The translations under genes were made by a program, and so were the position numbers. A stretch of DNA of 43,795 nt from a virus: positions 1 to 43,795 of IMG/VR virus record IMGVR_UViG_3300047678_000242; one strand, 5' to 3'. The number at the start of each line of letters is the position of its first letter. Positions within the stretch are counted from its first letter, which is position 1. The notes beneath the pieces are model-generated. The model saw only the letters and a list, made by a program, of their open reading frames with translations. It made no database searches and had not been told where the DNA came from. Below, piece by piece: positions 1,474-42,382 of the stretch.

Positions 1474-1547
1474 GGCGGAGTAGCAAAATGGTTATGCAGC
1501 GGCCTGCAAAGCCGTGTACGCCGGTTCGATTCCGGCCTCCGCCTCCA
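1474..1547 (+). tRNA. tRNA-Cys (GCA), prophage integration target
   Basis: A 74-nt cloverleaf with a GGCGGAG/CTCCGCC acceptor stem, anticodon GCA (1506-1508), T-arm CCGGTTCGATTCCGG and encoded CCA. Its 3' 47 nt (1501-1547) are duplicated at the far end of the prophage, so integration left this copy intact. Confidence 0.97.
1501..1547 (+). repeat. attL core (tRNA-Cys 3' half)
   Basis: Identical to 42256-42302 over 47 bp. The identity begins in the 3' part of the anticodon stem-loop region and ends at the CCA; bases before and after differ between the two copies. Confidence 0.95.
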
Positions 1548-1583
1548 ACAGAATCAAATACTTAGCGGCGTGAAATTCGCTGC

Positions 1584-1615
1584 GTTTCGCCAGAATGGCG
1601 AAACAGTTTCGCCAT
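1584..1615. repeat. GTTTCGCCA arm-like repeats, left end
   Basis: GTTTCGCCA at 1584-1592, its inverse TGGCGAAAC at 1596-1604 (a 9-bp inverted repeat with a 3-nt centre) and GTTTCGCCAT at 1606-1615. The same 9-mer appears twice near the right end. This position relative to att is what is expected of arm-type integrase or excisionase sites. Confidence 0.6.
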
Positions 1616-2073
1616 CAGGACGATTGTGCGGCCCAGGCCGAGCGCATTTGTTCGTCATCAGGCCGGCCCGCCAGCCAGTGCGCATAGGCCGGCCCGTCGA
1701 ACGCCGCCAGGTCTGCCAGTGGCTCGGTGGCTACCAGCTCGGCCATCACCGAGCAGTGCGGACGCCAAAGCCACGGCTCGCGTCCCGCCAGGCTCATCCA
1801 ATCCTCCACCCGGCTGTACCACACCAGCGCGATGCCGATCGGCTCGCCATGGGCCGCCTGCGCGTCTTGGATGGCCGCACGCGCGGTCTGGAGCGCCTGC
1901 GCGCGCCATTCCACTAGCTGGACCATCCGGTCAGCCACGTCGGCCGGCACCTGGCGTTGGCCGGACTCCCATAGATTCCACGCCCGCTCGGACGCCTCGC
2001 CGACGAGCGCTGCCGCCTCCGGGCGCGAGAAAAACAAAAGGCGCCGTAGCGCCTCCAGCTCGATGCCGGTCAT
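1615..2073 (-). CDS. YdiL/DUF1870-family regulator, Aca2-like
   Basis: 152 aa. Residues 1-55 (MTGIELEALRRLLFFSRPEA, then an ERAWNLWESGQRQVPADVAD stretch) match the helix-turn-helix pattern of the YdiL/DUF1870 family: an ELQALR-type first helix, then a W-x-x-W-E-x-G core and a P-x-D-V turn. Anti-CRISPR-associated Aca2 repressors belong to this family. The later part (VEDWMSLAGREPWLWRPHCS, then a MAELVA stretch) also aligns with the family's second half. A ~25-residue C-terminal tail is extra relative to typical 115-125 aa members. It starts directly after the stop of the upstream 102-aa gene, so the pair is translationally linked. Expected role: autorepression of the operon from the palindrome at 2435-2452. 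Family match is fairly sure; the Aca role is inferred. Confidence 0.7.
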   Translation of the reverse strand: MTGIELEALRRLLFFSRPEAAALVGEASERAWNLWESGQRQVPADVADRMVQLVEWRAQALQTARAAIQDAQAAHGEPIGIALVWYSRVEDWMSLAGREPWLWRPHCSVMAELVATEPLADLAAFDGPAYAHWLAGRPDDEQMRSAWAAQSS

Positions 2074-2382
2074 CTAGATCTCGATCTCGAAATGTGCCCC
2101 GCCGATGTTGCTCCAGCCCGCGAAAGCGGCCTGATGGCCAGCACGCTCGGCTTCTTCCCACCGATCAATGATGGCGCAGTCCAAAAATGACGATCCTGCG
2201 GGCAGTGGAGATTCACCGTAGTGAGTGAAAACGCGCATGTAATCGGCGTAAGCCTGGGCCACTTTGCCCTCTCCGCCAAGGGCGGCCTCAAGCGCTTCGC
2301 AAAAACGTTCGGTGGCGGCCTGCCGCTCGTCGGCGGTGACGCCGCGCAGATTGGTGAGGGTGGCGCTGTAGGTGGTGGTCAT
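2074..2382 (-). CDS. Unknown 102-aa protein; candidate anti-CRISPR
   Basis: No family is recognised. The protein is small and acidic (ends GAHFEIEI), with a helical first half (VTADERQAATERFCEALEAA) and no membrane segment or signal. A GGGAG ribosome site lies 6 nt before ATG. It is the first gene of a two-gene operon whose second gene is an Aca2-like regulator abutting it without a gap. In known loci, small unrelated proteins in exactly this place are anti-CRISPRs. The operon sits alone between attL and the integrase, a usual place for accessory genes, and has its own promoter. The function is inference from position only. Confidence 0.5.
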   Translation of the reverse strand: MTTTYSATLTNLRGVTADERQAATERFCEALEAALGGEGKVAQAYADYMRVFTHYGESPLPAGSSFLDCAIIDRWEEAERAGHQAAFAGWSNIGGAHFEIEI

Positions 2383-2430
2383 GCTGATCTCCCGGGGAGG
2401 TCGGTCTGCACTATTGCTGACCGTGAAATC

Positions 2431-2459
2431 ATTATGTTCCGAATTCGGAACAATGTCAA
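2431..2459 (-). promoter_or_regulatory. Promoter with embedded 18-bp palindromic operator
   Basis: Read on the minus strand: TTGACA (2454-2459), exactly 17 nt, then CATAAT (2431-2436). The perfect palindrome TGTTCCGAATTCGGAACA (2435-2452) fills the spacer and touches the -10 box, so a bound dimer would exclude RNA polymerase. It drives the 102-aa gene and the Aca2-like gene, and the latter is the natural candidate repressor. Confidence 0.75.
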
Positions 2460-2496
2460 CGATTATTTTTCAACTTTCGATTGAGCGGCGCAACAA

Positions 2497-3579
2497 TTAG
2501 CTTTTACGTCTCAACGCACTAACCCGCTCCCCCCGCCGCTCCCGCACATAGTCGGCCGTCATGGCCTCTGTGCTGTGCCCGAGCAGCTTTCGCGCGCTGG
2601 CCATCGACTCGCTGTCGGTGGCGGTCTTGGCGCGCAGATCCCGCAGCTGGAACCGTGTCCACGGTTCGCCCTTCGACAGCGCCTCGGCCTCGGCCGCTGC
2701 CCGTGCTTTGTCGAACTGGCTGCGAAAATACCCGAACTGTTTCAACGGCTGGCCCGACGGGTCGGCCACGATCGTCATGCCCACCACGCCGCGCGCGCGG
2801 ATGCGCTCCAACAGCGTGGCCAGCTCGCCGGCCACCTCGATGCGCAGCTTCGCGCGCGTCTTGCCCTGCTGCACCTCCAGCGCGCCCTCGCGAATGTGGT
2901 CCCAGCGCATCTTGCGCACGTCGGCGGGGCGCTGGCCGGTGAGGTAAGCCAGGTCGAGCACGTCGCGCACCACCGGCCCGGCGTGCTTGTACACGCGCGC
3001 CAGGTCGGCGTCGCTGACGTAAATGTCGCGCGACTCGTTCACCTTCATCTGCCGCAGGATGCCGGCCAGCGGATTCGGCGCTGTCATGTAGCCGCGCGCA
3101 CGTGCCCAATTGCACACCACCGACAGGTACTTGAGTTCCTTCTTGCCCGTCACCTGGCTGGAGCGGTCGTCGAAATAGCGCAGCATGTGCTCGGGCCGCA
3201 GCGCGTCGATGGTGGCGGCGCCGAACACCGGCTCCAGCTTGGCCCAGTACTTGGCCCGGTCAGCCAGCGTGCGCACCGATAGGCCGCTTTTCGCGCGATT
3301 CTCGGCCCATTTGAGGTACCGAGCGTGCACGCCCGTCACCGAGCGCTCGTCGGCCGCCAGCGGCGCCTCGGCGCGCGGCTTGCCCTCGAGCGCGGCCCAC
3401 TGGATTTTGGCCTGCGTGAGATCCGAGCCCAGCGGCGTGAGCTTACGTTTGCCAGCGGCGTCGCGCGGGTGCTCGTAGAAGAAATACTCGCGCACCACCC
3501 CGCGCCTGGTCGTGCGCGATCGGCGCACCATGCGGCGCGGTAGGTCGGAGTGGGCGAGTTTGGGCGCGGCCATCGGCAT
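2497..3579 (-). CDS. int: Phage tyrosine-recombinase integrase
   Basis: 360 aa. The N-terminal ~60 residues are basic and arm-binding-like. A core-binding domain follows, then the catalytic domain: Arg in YLTGQRPADVRKMRW, an L-R-D-L-R-A box (Arg in place of the more common His of HxxR), KLLGHS with its His, and the nucleophile Tyr in MTADYVRERRG near the C-terminus. It catalyses recombination between the 47-bp tRNA-Cys core and the bacterial site. It is the last gene of the long leftward operon, 1 nt after the DUF4224 gene. The start is the first ATG; a second ATG two codons later is possible. Confidence 0.93.
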   Translation of the reverse strand: MPMAAPKLAHSDLPRRMVRRSRTTRRGVVREYFFYEHPRDAAGKRKLTPLGSDLTQAKIQWAALEGKPRAEAPLAADERSVTGVHARYLKWAENRAKSGLSVRTLADRAKYWAKLEPVFGAATIDALRPEHMLRYFDDRSSQVTGKKELKYLSVVCNWARARGYMTAPNPLAGILRQMKVNESRDIYVSDADLARVYKHAGPVVRDVLDLAYLTGQRPADVRKMRWDHIREGALEVQQGKTRAKLRIEVAGELATLLERIRARGVVGMTIVADPSGQPLKQFGYFRSQFDKARAAAEAEALSKGEPWTRFQLRDLRAKTATDSESMASARKLLGHSTEAMTADYVRERRGERVSALRRKS

Positions 3580-3580
3580 A

Positions 3581-3802
3581 TCATGCCACCTTATCGAAAG
3601 CGGGGAAGGTCACTCCCTGCTGGCCGTTCGTCGGGTCGACGCCTGCCAGCTTCATGCGCACATACCAGCGGCCCACAATGGGCTCTCCGGCGGCGTTCAG
3701 GGTGTAATGCCACCGCACGGCGTTCAGCCACTCGATGATCGCGCCTTTATGATGTCGGCCGGCGATCTCGCGCAGCTCGTCTTGAGTGAGGGCTTCGGTC
3801 AT
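3581..3802 (-). CDS. DUF4224 family protein, possible excisionase/integration accessory
   Basis: 73 aa. The opening LTQDELREIAGRHHKGAIIE, then the WLNAVRWHYTLNAAGEPIVG stretch fits the DUF4224 pattern (LT-x-x-E-L, a helix-turn-helix-like segment, then G-x-P-x-V). Such proteins commonly precede phage integrases. It ends 1 nt before the integrase start and overlaps the reverse transcriptase stop by 4 nt, so it is co-translated with both. A directionality-factor role is plausible from position but is not shown by sequence. Confidence 0.7.
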   Translation of the reverse strand: MTEALTQDELREIAGRHHKGAIIEWLNAVRWHYTLNAAGEPIVGRWYVRMKLAGVDPTNGQQGVTFPAFDKVA

Positions 3803-5202
3803 GTCCGATACGCCTTGGTGAGATCAGCATCAACGCAATGCCCACGCGCCCGCACCAAGTTCGCCAGCCGCGCCCGGTCGACGTGGCTGGCCGGCACCTG
3901 ACGCAGAAGGCCGAAGTAGCTGTTGGCCGATGTGAAGACATCCTCGGCCGGCATGGTGGCCAGGCGCTGCAGGCCGGCACGCACGGTGCGCCGGCGGGTG
4001 GTGTGGTGCCATGGCTTGATCAGGTGGCCAACGAAGTCCACGCCGCGCTCGATCGGCTGCAGGATGGTCTTGCGCGGGTTGAGCTGCAGGTGCAGCTCGC
4101 GCGGCAACCAGGTGGTGATGTCGGCCAGCCAGGCGTTGAGCTGCTGGGGCGACTCGTGCAACAGGATGAAGTCGTCGACGTACCGGATGTAATGACGCAC
4201 CTGCAGGCGGTGCTTGACGTGCTGGTCGAGCGCATCGAGCAGCACGTTGGCGAAGAACTGGCTGCTCAGGTTCCCGATCGGCAGGCCATGGTCAGCGGAC
4301 TGAGATCTCAAGCGCTTGTGCGGCGGTACCAGTGCGAGCTGGCGGGCACGGCTCTGCAGGTGCACGTCGGGCCGGGGATCGTGAAACAGGATCGTCTCGG
4401 CCAGATCCATCCACCATGGCTCATGGATGCGCCTGGCCAGCAGGCCGCGCAGGATGGCCTTGTCGATCGAGACAAAGAAGTTGGCCAGGTCGCACTTGAG
4501 GTACCACGCCGGCCTGCGCCAGTTGGCAGTGATCGAGCGGATTTTCGCGGCCAGGCGGTTGCCGGCGTACAGCGTGCCGCGGCCGGGAATGCAAGCGCAC
4601 GAGTCAGCAATGAATCCCGCGTGGAAGCGCGGCGCGACGTGGTTGTACAGCAGGTGGTGCACGATGCGGTCGACGAACGGTGCGGCCCACACTTCGCGTG
4701 GCTTCGGCCGGGTGATGACAAAGCAGATTGAGCGGCCGGGCGCGTAAGTGCGGTCCTGCAAGGATTGATACAGCCGCCACAAGTTGGCCTCCTGGTGCGC
4801 CTCGAAGGCGCGCGCGGAGGGCGTCGTGCGCTTGTGCTGCCGACAATCAATGTAGGCCTGCACAAGGGTGCTGAAAGAAAAAGCAGCATGGGAAGAAGGC
4901 GCTTTCGTCTGCGGACGAGCACCACCGGATACTCGTTGTCCTTGTGGTTGTTGTTCTGGTTGCCGTTGTTGAAGCTCTGCAGCCAGGCCCACGAGTCGTT
5001 GCCGGCGTTCTGCGTCGATCACACTATCCACGTCGTCCGGCCGAAGATCCGGAGTGCGATCGATCAGCGGGGAAACTGCGCCGGACGCGGCCTGGCCAGA
5101 GAACAGCGAAAGCTGGCCAGCGGTATCCGTGGTGCGCATGTCGGTGGCCACCTCATTTTCCAATGCGGTGGCCAGCGGTGTGACCAGATGAAAATCAGGC
5201 AC
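3799..5202 (-). CDS. Diversity-generating retroelement reverse transcriptase
   Basis: Copies the template-repeat RNA into adenine-mutagenised cDNA that replaces the variable repeats. Motifs counted from the GTG at 5202: motif A Asp in YLKCDLANFFVSID (~238), the DGR-type motif 4 GLPIGNLSSQ (IGxxxSQ rather than QGxxxSP, ~306-315) and catalytic YVDD (341-344), then a thumb with HLQLNPRKT. The conserved RT fold begins near residue ~108 (FSFSTLVQAY, ~4880). The frame before that runs through the template repeat (residues ~62-100). The GTG at 5202 overlaps the avd stop by 8 nt, which suits translational coupling. The only later start before the RT core is a GTG at 4863 without a clear ribosome site. 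The RT identity is secure; the N-terminus is uncertain. Confidence 0.92.
   Translation of the reverse strand: MPDFHLVTPLATALENEVATDMRTTDTAGQLSLFSGQAASGAVSPLIDRTPDLRPDDVDSVIDAERRQRLVGLAAELQQRQPEQQPQGQRVSGGARPQTKAPSSHAAFSFSTLVQAYIDCRQHKRTTPSARAFEAHQEANLWRLYQSLQDRTYAPGRSICFVITRPKPREVWAAPFVDRIVHHLLYNHVAPRFHAGFIADSCACIPGRGTLYAGNRLAAKIRSITANWRRPAWYLKCDLANFFVSIDKAILRGLLARRIHEPWWMDLAETILFHDPRPDVHLQSRARQLALVPPHKRLRSQSADHGLPIGNLSSQFFANVLLDALDQHVKHRLQVRHYIRYVDDFILLHESPQQLNAWLADITTWLPRELHLQLNPRKTILQPIERGVDFVGHLIKPWHHTTRRRTVRAGLQRLATMPAEDVFTSANSYFGLLRQVPASHVDRARLANLVRARGHCVDADLTKAYRT
4908..5018 (-). repeat. DGR template repeat (TR)
   Basis: On the minus strand this segment matches the ends of both target genes but carries nine AAC codons at the variable positions (QNAGNDSW, then FNNGNQNNNHKDNEYP in the target frame). 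Compared with VR1 it differs at 10 sites and compared with VR2 at 7 sites; every one is an A in TR on the RT-coding strand. It lies between avd and the RT core, the usual TR place, but here also inside the extended RT reading frame. Confidence 0.95.
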
Positions 5203-5599
5203 GGCCAGGATCGCCTTGACGGTCCTGGAACAGACCCGGTTGCTGGGGTGCGCCCCGTTCCTTCTCCGACCGCCGCCACCCGTTGGCCTGCATGCCGATC
5301 GACTGGGTGCGGCCGATGATCCTGGCGTAGTGGGCCGGCGGGATGTAGCGCTGGTCCCGGCAGATCCGCGTCAGGAGTTCGATCACTTCCAGCCGCTCCA
5401 GGAGCTGCAGCAGGTGCGGCTCTTTCTCCTGCGCCATGTTGGCCGCGCGGACGTGGAGGTCAAGCTCGATGCAGGCGTCGATGATCTTCTCGCCGAAAAC
5501 GCGCTTGGCGTCCCGGCGCATGTTCAAGATCACGTCACCCGCTGCGCTCAGCAGGTCATAGCAGTCTGCGTAAATATCGAGGGCGGTGTGGAGAGCCAT
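5195..5599 (-). CDS. avd: DGR accessory variability determinant (Avd)
   Basis: 134 aa, mostly helical. The pattern (IYADCYDLLSAAGDVILNMR ... FGEKIIDACIELDLHVRAAN ... ERLEVIELLTRICRDQRYIP) is that of the Avd four-helix bundle, related to 23S rRNA intervening-sequence proteins. The last ~20 residues look disordered. Avd forms a basic pentamer that binds the RT and the TR RNA and is needed for mutagenic homing. It stands between the VR1 target gene (36 nt upstream) and the TR/RT, the canonical DGR order. Confidence 0.9.
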   Translation of the reverse strand: MALHTALDIYADCYDLLSAAGDVILNMRRDAKRVFGEKIIDACIELDLHVRAANMAQEKEPHLLQLLERLEVIELLTRICRDQRYIPPAHYARIIGRTQSIGMQANGWRRSEKERGAPQQPGLFQDRQGDPGRA

Positions 5600-5635
5600 G
5601 CTGCGAAAAGCCTCAAAAATTATCGAATGAACGAA

Positions 5636-6151
5636 TCAGCGAATGGGTACTCTGCGGACGAGCACCACCGGATACTCGTCGTCCTTGTGGTTGAGGTGCT
5701 GGTAGCCGTCGTAGAAGCTCTGCAGCCAGGCCCACGAGTCGAGGCCGGCGTCCTGCGTCGAGGTCCAGTGCCATTCCTTCTGGTAAGCGTCTGAACAGTT
5801 CGCGAAAGCGATGCGAGCCTCCCGGCGCGAGGCGATGTAGTAGTCGCGGTGCCCCTCGCACTCGACCAGGGTGGCGCGGCTGGCGATCTCGCTGCCGGCA
5901 TCGCGCATGGCCAGCGTGTTGGCCATGCCGTCGAATTCACTCTCCGCGGCCTTGACGTTCTTGAGCGGACCCCATTTGCCCTTGATGAAAATGCCGGGCG
6001 GTTTCACCAGGCAGTAATCAGGCTGGCCGGGCAGGCCCTTGACGATGCCCAGCAACACGCCGCCCTGGCCAGGCCACTCGGCGCCTATCCGCGGCGTGAT
6101 CATCCGCTCGACATTTTCCGGCCGCTGCGCGGCGGGTTTTGCTCGTGCCAT
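5636..6151 (-). CDS. DGR target protein 1 (C-type-lectin-like, variable C-terminus)
   Basis: 171 aa from the ATG at 6151, which has an AAGGAG site 6 nt upstream. A short N-terminal part leads into a DUF1566/formylglycine-enzyme-like C-type lectin fold (AMRDAGSEIA ... HRDYYIASRREARIAF ... EWHWTSTQDAG). The C-terminal ~37 residues are VR1 (LDSWAWLQSFYDGYQHLNHK, then DDEYPVVLVRR). It is clearly a paralogue of the next target gene (TLAMRDAGSEIA versus TVAMAEAGSEVA). No signal peptide, lipobox or tail-protein domain is visible, so its location and ligand are unknown. Upstream in-frame codons overlap the neighbouring gene's VR and are not needed. Confidence 0.88.
   Translation of the reverse strand: MARAKPAAQRPENVERMITPRIGAEWPGQGGVLLGIVKGLPGQPDYCLVKPPGIFIKGKWGPLKNVKAAESEFDGMANTLAMRDAGSEIASRATLVECEGHRDYYIASRREARIAFANCSDAYQKEWHWTSTQDAGLDSWAWLQSFYDGYQHLNHKDDEYPVVLVRRVPIR
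5651..5761 (-). repeat. DGR variable repeat 1 (VR1)
   Basis: Aligns without gaps to TR 4908-5018. It has ten substitutions, at the sites matching TR 4937, 4951, 4952, 4955, 4961, 4967, 4970, 4999, 5000 and 5009, all at TR adenines. Eight of nine AAC codons are changed (to Asp, Leu, Tyr, Asp, Tyr, His, Leu, Asp). The GC-rich 3' end of the repeat (initiation-of-homing side) is unchanged. Confidence 0.95.
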
Positions 6152-6182
6152 GAAATGCTCCTTCAATGATCGAATGGGTGAA

Positions 6183-6803
6183 TTAGCCGATGACCACTCT
6201 GCGGACGAGCACCACCGGATACTCGTTGTCCTCGTGGGTGTCGTTCTGGTCGCCGTTGCTGAAGCGCTGCAGCCAGGCCCACGAGTCGTGGCCGGCGTTC
6301 TGCGTGGAGGTCCAGTACCACGCGGCCTCGAGCGCTTCGGCACCGCCCTCGCGGAAGGCCTCCACGGTGGTCTGTGCGGGCAGATCCGGCGTGTAAGGCG
6401 CGGTGGGCGGGCAGGCGTTCAGGTTGATGCCGGCGCGTGCATAGCAGTCGTTCTTGCGCGTGGTGGGCTTGAGGTTGCGATACACCAGCTCCATCTCGTC
6501 GATGGCGGGGATGTACCAGTCGGCGTGGCCGGCGATGCTCCTGGCCAGCGCCCACTTGGCGACTTCACTGCCGGCTTCGGCCATGGCCACGGTGTTGAGC
6601 CAGCCGTCGTGATAGCTCAGGGCGCCGGTGACCGTCTTGGTCGACTGATTCCAGGCGGTGGGGGCGTGGCGCCCTTCGGCCTTGGGCGCCAGGATGATGG
6701 CGTGCACATTGCCGTTGATGGCGACCTGGCCGGCGAAGAAGCCGCCTTCGAAGGGCGAGCCGATGGCGGGGGTGTCGATGGTGCGGGGTGCGGGTGCGTT
6801 CAT
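6183..6803 (-). CDS. DGR target protein 2 (DUF1566/C-type-lectin-like, variable C-terminus)
   Basis: 206 aa with an AGGAG site before ATG. The N-terminal ~60 residues contain a beta-rich segment (GGFFAGQVAINGNVHAIILA). The C-type lectin-like region follows (TVAMAEAGSEVAKWALARSI ... ADWYIPAIDEMELVYRNLKP ... AAWYWTSTQNAG) and ends in VR2 (HDSWAWLQRFSNGDQNDTHE, then DNEYPVVLVRR). The WTSTQ ... W-A-W ... YPVVLVRR frame is the usual scaffold around displayed variable residues. It lies 29 nt after the ParB-like gene, in the same leftward operon. No export signal or virion-attachment domain is seen, which is unusual for a phage DGR target. Confidence 0.9.
   Translation of the reverse strand: MNAPAPRTIDTPAIGSPFEGGFFAGQVAINGNVHAIILAPKAEGRHAPTAWNQSTKTVTGALSYHDGWLNTVAMAEAGSEVAKWALARSIAGHADWYIPAIDEMELVYRNLKPTTRKNDCYARAGINLNACPPTAPYTPDLPAQTTVEAFREGGAEALEAAWYWTSTQNAGHDSWAWLQRFSNGDQNDTHEDNEYPVVLVRRVVIG
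6198..6305 (-). repeat. DGR variable repeat 2 (VR2)
   Basis: Aligns without gaps to TR 4908-5015 with seven substitutions (TR 4943, 4948, 4952, 4961, 4969, 4976, 5000), all at adenines of the RT-coding strand. The changes give Asn to His, Ser to Arg, Asn to Ser, Asn to Asp (twice), Asn to Thr and Lys to Glu. Confidence 0.95.
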
Positions 6804-42140: not shown

Positions 42141-42212
42141 GTTTCGCCATCGGTTTTTGAACCTTGTAGAATCAAAGGCTTACAACGCCCATTTTTTGGG
42201 CGATGGCGAAAC
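42141..42212. repeat. GTTTCGCCA arm-like repeats and hairpin, right end
   Basis: GTTTCGCCAT at 42141-42150 and its inverse ATGGCGAAAC at 42203-42212, matching the three copies near attL. Between them lie a 6-bp hairpin with T5 loop (42186-42191 / 42197-42202) and AGAATCAAA (42168-42176), a 9-mer also found just inside attL (1550-1558). Confidence 0.6.
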
Positions 42213-42255
42213 AATTCCGGGCGTAACCTATTGGATTCAGTAGGAAAAAGTTCAA

Positions 42256-42302
42256 GGCCTGCAAAGCCGTGTACGCCGGTTCGATTCCGGCCTCCGCCTC
42301 CA
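42256..42302 (+). repeat. attR core (tRNA-Cys 3' fragment)
   Basis: 47 bp identical to the 3' part of tRNA-Cys (1501-1547), without the 5' half, so it is not a functional tRNA. It marks the right end of the prophage. Confidence 0.95.
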
Positions 42303-42306
42303 CTCC

Positions 42307-42382
42307 AAAAATGGGGTCAGACCCCTTTTCTTCCGCATCTGCGAGAGCCATTGCAAAAATGGGGTCAGACCCCTTTTTTCGC
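42307..42382. repeat. Two GGGGTCAGACCCC hairpin repeats
   Basis: GGGGTCAGACCCC at 42313-42325 and 42361-42373, each with an A-tract before and a T-tract after (AAAAAT ... TTTT). This short element is common in beta- and gammaproteobacterial intergenic DNA, often linked with REP-associated transposases. It can also act as a two-way terminator. Host DNA, directly next to attR. The rest of the gap up to the epsA-like gene (42383-42805) shows only the CRP-like site. Confidence 0.65.

What the first reader, a model, noticed from the sequence alone, without database searches (positions are those of the whole stretch)
1615..2382. Candidate anti-CRISPR operon: unknown 102-aa acidic protein plus Aca2-like regulator
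A small protein of no recognised family is directly followed, without a gap, by a YdiL/DUF1870 regulator of the Aca2 type. It is on its own promoter, in the accessory-gene site between attL and integrase. This is the guilt-by-association signature by which many anti-CRISPRs were found.
Basis: partly seen in the sequence, partly recalled or inferred. Interest (0 to 1): 0.85.

Follow-up and report, generated by a model that had tools for sequence, protein, structure and literature searches.

The report
Aca2-controlled phage operon carrying SOS-family protein
A prophage carries a tiny self-regulated gene pair whose switch is a true relative of a known anti-CRISPR switch, but whose working gene resembles bacterial genes that appear to be switched on by DNA damage, so calling it an anti-CRISPR is not yet justified.

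Summary
The pair is real: a 102-aa ORF (2382-2074, minus) whose stop abuts a 152-aa Aca2-family gene (2073-1615). The regulator is Aca2-like by Pfam, PDB sequence, predicted fold, tree and the conserved Arg30. A perfect palindrome TGTTCCGAATTCGGAACA fills the spacer of the only sigma-70-like promoter, where phage ZF40 has TGTTCGCGATTGCGAACA. Twenty-two viral contigs encode close relatives of this regulator; many share the palindromic promoter and a leader RNA hairpin, but their upstream genes differ (20 cargo ORFs, 17 families). So this is an Aca2-type locus with exchangeable cargo.

The cargo is not an orphan. It is a divergent member (leave-one-out E 2.4e-14) of an undescribed Burkholderiales family found on chromosomes, plasmids and phages; 14 of 17 members, not the window, have a LexA-type box within 100 nt of the start. 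It occurs with Aca2 only here. The phage appears to have moved an SOS-family gene from LexA to Aca2 control. I found no similarity to a known Acr, and no Cas1 in 5 host-family genomes. Anti-CRISPR activity is possible (about 12%); an early effector on host DNA-damage functions, or another counter-defence protein, is likelier. All function is inferred.

The parts
2074..2382 (-). cargo gene, 102 aa, divergent member of a LexA-linked Burkholderiales family (predicted b-a-a-a-b)
   Evidence: leave-one-out 49.0 bits, E 2.4e-14; pLDDT 87.2
1615..2073 (-). Aca2-type HTH regulator, 152 aa, R30 conserved
2431..2459 (-). sigma-70-like promoter TTGACA-N17-CATAAT
   Evidence: sequence
2435..2452 (.). operator: perfect 18-bp palindrome TGTTCCGAATTCGGAACA inside the promoter spacer
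   Evidence: 0.02 expected per window for TGTTCN8GAACA; also in ZF40 and Pm86
2402..2423 (-). leader RNA hairpin (outer stem CGGUC/GACCG, inner GCA/UGC, loop AUAG)
   Evidence: same hairpin in 9 of 9 leaders
2388..2399 (-). Shine-Dalgarno region, predicted to be paired
1501..1547 (+). attL core inside tRNA-Cys (1474-1547)
42256..42302 (+). attR core
2497..3579 (-). tyrosine integrase upstream of the operon
   Evidence: PF00589, 7.3e-10

Best explanation
This is an Aca2-type, self-limiting, one-cargo operon at the integrase end of a Burkholderiales prophage. SHOWN by sequence: a strong promoter with a palindrome in its spacer; a leader hairpin; the cargo gene; and, abutting it, an Aca2-type repressor. 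The same set with other cargo genes recurs in other phages. INFERRED from work on ZF40 Aca2: on entry the promoter fires unrepressed, cargo and repressor are made, and the repressor dimer then closes the promoter (and perhaps the leader RNA), giving a short burst. SHOWN: the cargo belongs to a family that elsewhere mostly sits behind LexA-type boxes, alone on chromosomes or beside umuDC on mobile elements. INFERRED: the phage captured an SOS-family gene and swapped its LexA control for Aca2 control, so that the protein appears at infection rather than after DNA damage. There it most likely acts on a host DNA-damage/SOS, replication or division function to the phage's benefit, comparable in logic to the plasmid SOS-inhibition (psi) genes found in anti-defence clusters. 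How likely: anatomy about 0.9; change of control about 0.75; SOS-directed action about 0.35.
For: Regulator. Operator in the same place as ZF40. Sister loci with the same regulator and different cargo; leader hairpin 9 of 9. Cargo family; leave-one-out 49.0 bits, E 2.4e-14 over 715 segments. LexA-type box within 100 nt in 14 of 17 members, strict form 9 of 17, against 48 and 1 of 1217 background windows. umuD/umuC next to members in L047/L073, L074 (umuD only) and L043. psi locus beside an aca9-acr locus: PMC7648647, passage.
Against: No function is known for any member of the cargo family. The window copy is the most divergent of 16 (49.7 bits against 84-130) and may do something new. A LexA-type box shows regulation, not function. 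Most chromosomal members have no repair gene as a neighbour that I could name. The predicted fold gives no informative PDB match. Repression and RNA binding were not testable.
Confidence: 0.5

Rival explanations
1. The cargo is an anti-CRISPR: it blocks a Cas complex early in infection and Aca2 limits its expression.
For: Aca2-type regulator, operator and position; hypervariable small cargo in sister loci, as in acr loci; ZF40 acrIF8-aca2 has the same layout.
Against: No similarity to known Acr models or solved Acrs; the family is LexA-linked and mostly chromosomal; no Cas1 in 5 host-family genomes; only 35 of 1223 Aca2-like proteins had an upstream acr (PMC9410906).
Confidence: 0.12
2. The cargo counters another defence (restriction, abortive infection, retron or similar), with its SOS ancestry incidental.
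For: Aca-type loci also hold other anti-defence genes (PMC7648647 passages); one sister cargo is an LPD29 protein and one a ParB-like protein.
Against: No direct link of this protein or its family to any defence system (PADLOC: one weak hit, 0.016).
Confidence: 0.25
3. The cargo is a lysogeny or host-takeover protein: an antirepressor or division inhibitor, retained by the prophage for induction or host control.
For: Two relatives lie beside repressor-like genes in prophage-type loci with double LexA-type boxes (L070, L071); LexA-linked small proteins of phages and hosts often have such roles (recalled).
Against: Many relatives stand alone on chromosomes; the window copy has no LexA-type box, which an induction switch would be expected to keep.
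Confidence: 0.12
4. Coincidence: a host YdiL-like regulator beside an unrelated ORF.
For: DUF1870/YdiL proteins are widespread and often without acr (PMC9410906).
Against: Phage-type Aca2 by sequence and tree, operator in the promoter, stop abutting start, and 20 of 24 sister loci with an ORF ending within -10 to +4 nt of aca2.
Confidence: 0.01

Closest known systems
acrIF8-aca2 operon of Pectobacterium phage ZF40
   Same: small gene plus Aca2 in one operon, palindrome TGTTC-N8-GAACA in the core promoter, Aca2 R30 (PMC8434428 passage), leader hairpin followed by a hairpin at the ribosome site
   Different: regulator 152 aa against 116 aa, 34% identity; cargo unrelated to AcrIF8 by the searches made and related to a LexA-linked family
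betaproteobacterial-type phage Aca2 loci (L036, L040, L086-L107), not named in the papers I saw
   Same: regulator 37-56% identical, similar operator and leader in many, abutting small cargo
   Different: none of the other cargoes belongs to the 102-aa family
LexA-linked 102-aa family (e.g. Acidovorax phage Aval gp48c, Polaromonas plasmid pH6NP1 gene next to umuD)
   Same: full-length homology, same length
   Different: window copy has no LexA-type box and is followed by Aca2 instead
YdiL / SO3848
   Same: same two-domain fold (Foldseek 1s4k 7.0e-6, 2ox6 1.1e-7)
   Different: far weaker sequence similarity (1s4k E 0.022); ydiL stands alone in print (PMC8434428 passages)

Membership tests
Aca2 regulators | Aca2_YdiL domain over the curated cut-off | tested here: met
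   59.5 bits, cut-off 23.8
Aca2 regulators | closer to Aca2 than to YdiL in sequence | tested here: met
   7ezy 1.4e-14, 8w35 7e-11, 7b5j 2.1e-10, 1s4k 0.022; no YdiL row in the tree
Aca2 regulators | N-terminal HTH plus C-terminal dimerisation domain | tested here: met
   model pLDDT 94.5, Foldseek 7ezy TMt 0.85
Aca2 regulators | Arg30 in the recognition helix | tested here: met
   R30 in the window and in 12 of 12 rows of A11
Aca2 regulators | inverted repeat overlapping the core promoter | tested here: met
   18-bp palindrome in the -35/-10 spacer
Aca2 regulators | represses its own promoter | not testable with these tools
   needs a reporter or binding assay
Aca2 regulators | binds leader RNA (recalled; paper not held) | not testable with these tools
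   a conserved hairpin is predicted; binding not tested
Aca2 regulators | lies downstream of a validated acr | tested here: inconclusive
   no Acr model matches the cargo; Acr families share no common signature
anti-CRISPR proteins | inhibits a CRISPR-Cas system | not testable with these tools
   plating or plasmid interference assay needed
anti-CRISPR proteins | host lineage carries CRISPR-Cas | tested here: inconclusive
   Cas1 in 0 of 5 genomes of the family and 0 of 3 of the genus of the nearest relative; the true host genome is not held
LexA-linked 102-aa family | full-length sequence homology | tested here: met
   leave-one-out profile, 49.0 bits, E 2.4e-14, profile 5-99
LexA-linked 102-aa family | LexA-type box upstream (a property of 14 of 16 relatives, not required for homology) | tested here: not met
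   no CTGN10CAG within 100 nt of the window start

The most novel reading that the evidence does not exclude
Betaproteobacterial phages carry a standard Aca2 cassette (palindromic promoter, RNA leader hairpin, repressor) into which unrelated early counter-host genes are exchanged. In this phage the exchanged gene is a captured SOS effector, moved from LexA to Aca2 control, which disarms or redirects the host DNA-damage response, or a defence tied to it, at the moment of infection. The cassette's promoter and leader would then be a sequence bait for finding new counter-defence genes without any Acr homology.
Probability: 0.25. Interest if true: 0.82.

Novelty: new variant of a known kind. Interest (0 to 1): 0.6.

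Why it matters
Guilt by association with aca genes is a main route to anti-CRISPRs. Here the association is real at the level of regulator, operator and leader, yet the cargo traces to a DNA-damage-linked family. That suggests Aca2 cassettes serve a wider range of early phage functions than CRISPR evasion. The conserved promoter and leader give a testable handle on many unknown phage proteins, and the LexA-linked family is an unstudied candidate part of the Burkholderiales SOS response.

Tried and rejected
Single-protein searches with the 102-aa protein found nothing in phages, viral contigs or genome contigs; the family was reached only through whole-genome search and profiles. Weak Pfam, PADLOC and PHROGs hits (ESX-1_EspG 0.057, DUF1414 0.24, PDC-M07B 0.016 and others) were rejected as below cut-off or not shared between members. 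PDB Foldseek (best E 1.0) and the second look (best Z 4.6) gave no usable fold match; that does not show a new fold. BFVD gave two uncharacterised phage proteins (E 0.0077 and 0.038). Aval gp47c is not Aca2-like (E 0.047 over 46 residues; no Pfam hit). Rows dropped: L072 (27.7 bits) and L058/G100 (E 5e-4, a 501-aa frame) as doubtful members; L047 (same protein as L073, contig end) and L049 (same as L048) from the LexA count; L101 (partial). Leader-pattern hits that look like chance or stand without Aca2: L108, L110, L117, L119, L120, L121, with L109, L114 and L122 unclear. Taxonomy, tandem repeats, Rfam and covariance models were not used. Papers: PMC8434428 part 1 of 4 and passages; PMC9410906, PMC7648647 and PMC11239489 passages; all others as search listings. 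The 2024 Aca2-RNA paper and the 2019 Aca2 paper are not held and are recalled.

Full report
WHAT IS THERE. The window is an IMG/VR record of 43,795 bases holding a prophage in host DNA: 47 identical bases of the 3' end of tRNA-Cys stand at 1501-1547 and 42256-42302. A Burkholderiales metagenome contig (L005), which encodes a regulator 79% identical to the window's right-hand host gene, has the same tRNA-Gly/tRNA-Cys pair, an identical tRNA-Cys and no prophage there. Between attL and the integrase (3579-2497, PF00589) lie two minus-strand genes. The first is 102 aa (2382-2074); its TAG stop is followed directly by the ATG of the second, 152 aa (2073-1615).

THE REGULATOR IS AN ACA2. Pfam PF08965 Aca2_YdiL 4.7e-16; tblastn in phage records gives 5 records, Pasteurella phages and ZF40, whose gene neighbourhood is the acrIF8-aca2 place (gene names recalled and from PMC8434428). 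Against solved structures the best are Aca2 of 7ezy (1.4e-14) and ZF40 (7e-11 to 2.1e-10), with YdiL at 0.022. The model (pLDDT 94.5) matches 7ezy (1.3e-8) and 7b5j (1.9e-7), and also YdiL and SO3848, which share the fold. Arg30, needed for ZF40 Aca2 autoregulation (PMC8434428 passage), is kept in the window and in 12 of 12 rows aligned. In a tree of 25 rows the window sits with L089 and L099 (support 90/89), apart from the ZF40 group (no YdiL row; the bootstrap had not settled).

PROMOTER AND LEADER. One promoter-like site was found on 1540-3000, TTGACA-17-CATAAT (2459-2431; shuffle mean 0.2). Its spacer holds the perfect palindrome TGTTCCGAATTCGGAACA (2435-2452), whose last two bases reach into the second hexamer. 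ZF40 has TGTTCGCGATTGCGAACA directly before TATAAT. TGTTCN8GAACA occurs once in the window (0.02 expected) and, of 62 loci then held, in 3: the window copy, ZF40 and Pasteurella phage Pm86. The leader carries a hairpin; nine leaders were aligned and all nine fold with the same inner GCA/UGC stem and 4-6 outer pairs of differing sequence (each alone was reached by 5 to 49 of 500 flank shuffles, so modest singly). In seven of the nine the ribosome site pairs with an upstream CUC; in the window it pairs with GAUUUC; in L116 neither. Folded alone, the longer leader stretches are not exceptional in energy (z -1.89, 0.51 and -1.24 for window, L040 and ZF40). Of the nine, L113 was found only by the leader pattern, and L112 and L116 lie on contigs also found by protein (L098, L100). 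That Aca2 binds leader RNA is recalled; a held paper describes an Aca2-RNA complex (PMC11239489, passages).

SISTER LOCI. A search with three close regulators gave 22 viral loci. Of 24 loci examined (21 viral, L036, L040, window; L101 is partial), 20 have an ORF of 45 aa or more ending within -10 to +4 nt of aca2; the four without are L096 (31 nt available), L103, L106 and L107; the one in L091 is doubtful. L086, L087 and L088 are one sequence. A GTTC-N-GAAC palindrome upstream of the cargo is seen in the window, L040, L086-L088, L092, L095, L097 and L098, and L113 and L116; L094 and L105 have a variant, ACTTCC..GGAAGT; in L089, L099 and L102 I saw none, and several others are cut by contig ends. 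Twenty cargo ORFs fall into 17 families by BLAST. No NCBIfam, Pfam or PHROGs hit names an Acr; one is LPD29 and one ParB-like.

THE CARGO HAS A FAMILY. Pfam, NCBIfam and PHROGs give nothing over cut-off. Whole-genome search found relatives in 1 of 399 genomes of the order (35-37%); profile search found matches in 9 of 399 (one of them doubtful) and 1 of 229 of the class. Others: Polaromonas plasmid pH6NP1, a Variovorax megaplasmid, Acidovorax phage Aval and four viral loci. A profile of the 15 other members finds the window protein at 49.0 bits, E 2.4e-14, among 715 window segments, next best E 3.2; it is the most divergent member. The model is b-a-a-a-b (pLDDT 87.2). A LexA-type box (CTG-N10-CAG; its meaning in this group is recalled) lies within 100 nt of the start in 14 of 17 members, the strict CTGTN8ACAG in 9, against 48 and 1 of 1217 background windows. 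The three without are the window, L043 (behind trfA, with a box before umuD) and L044 (box 768 nt before the long reading frame; start uncertain). umuD follows in L047/L073, L074 and L043; others stand near ordinary chromosomal genes or phage repressor-like genes, named by eye from translations. Of all loci held, the family and Aca2 occur together only in the window (L001 is a copy of the window).

READING. The anatomy says Aca2-type cassette with exchangeable cargo. The ancestry says SOS-linked gene that lacks the LexA-type box of its relatives and has come under Aca2. Together they favour an early effector on host DNA-damage or related functions. A printed parallel exists: an aca9-acr locus beside anti-restriction genes and a plasmid SOS-inhibition locus (PMC7648647, passage). 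Against anti-CRISPR: no Acr similarity, no Cas1 in 5 family genomes (the true host is not held and the genomes may be incomplete), and the low base rate of 35 of 1223 (PMC9410906), which counts only acr genes known or predicted at that time. For it: the regulatory set is just that of acrIF8-aca2, and Acr proteins seldom resemble each other. No function has been measured for any member of the family, as far as I saw. Searches for papers on Aca2 with LexA and SOS, on the LexA regulon in Betaproteobacteria, on anti-CRISPR with SOS and LexA, on Aca2 with acr in prophages, and on umuDC with LexA boxes in Comamonadaceae listed none whose title or shown abstract describes this family or pairing; I did not read those papers in full.

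Noticed in passing
window 3581-6343, minus strand: Diversity-generating retroelement-like set beside the operon: reverse transcriptase (3799-5202), bAvd-like protein (5195-5599, just below cut-off) and an Lcl_C-type candidate target (5636-6343).
   Followed up: no
window 1584-1623 and 42141-42216: GTTTCGCCA / TGGCGAAAC repeats in inverted pairs next to both attachment sites, perhaps integrase arm sites.
   Followed up: no
L122 2490-2521; L114 340-368: Leader-like hairpin and ribosome site before a phage gene without the DNA palindrome; possibly RNA-only control by an Aca2.
   Followed up: partly
L070, L071: Family members with two LexA-type boxes beside S24/CI-like repressor genes in prophage-type loci.
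   Followed up: no
window 42300-42377 and L005 after 1287: Repeat around ATGGGGTCAGACCCC directly outside attR, also at the empty site of L005.
   Followed up: no
L105, L094: Variant operator ACTTCCGAATTCGGAAGT / ACTTCCGAAATCGGAAGT; the core of the L105 site equals the window's, suggesting operator drift within the Aca2 group.
   Followed up: no
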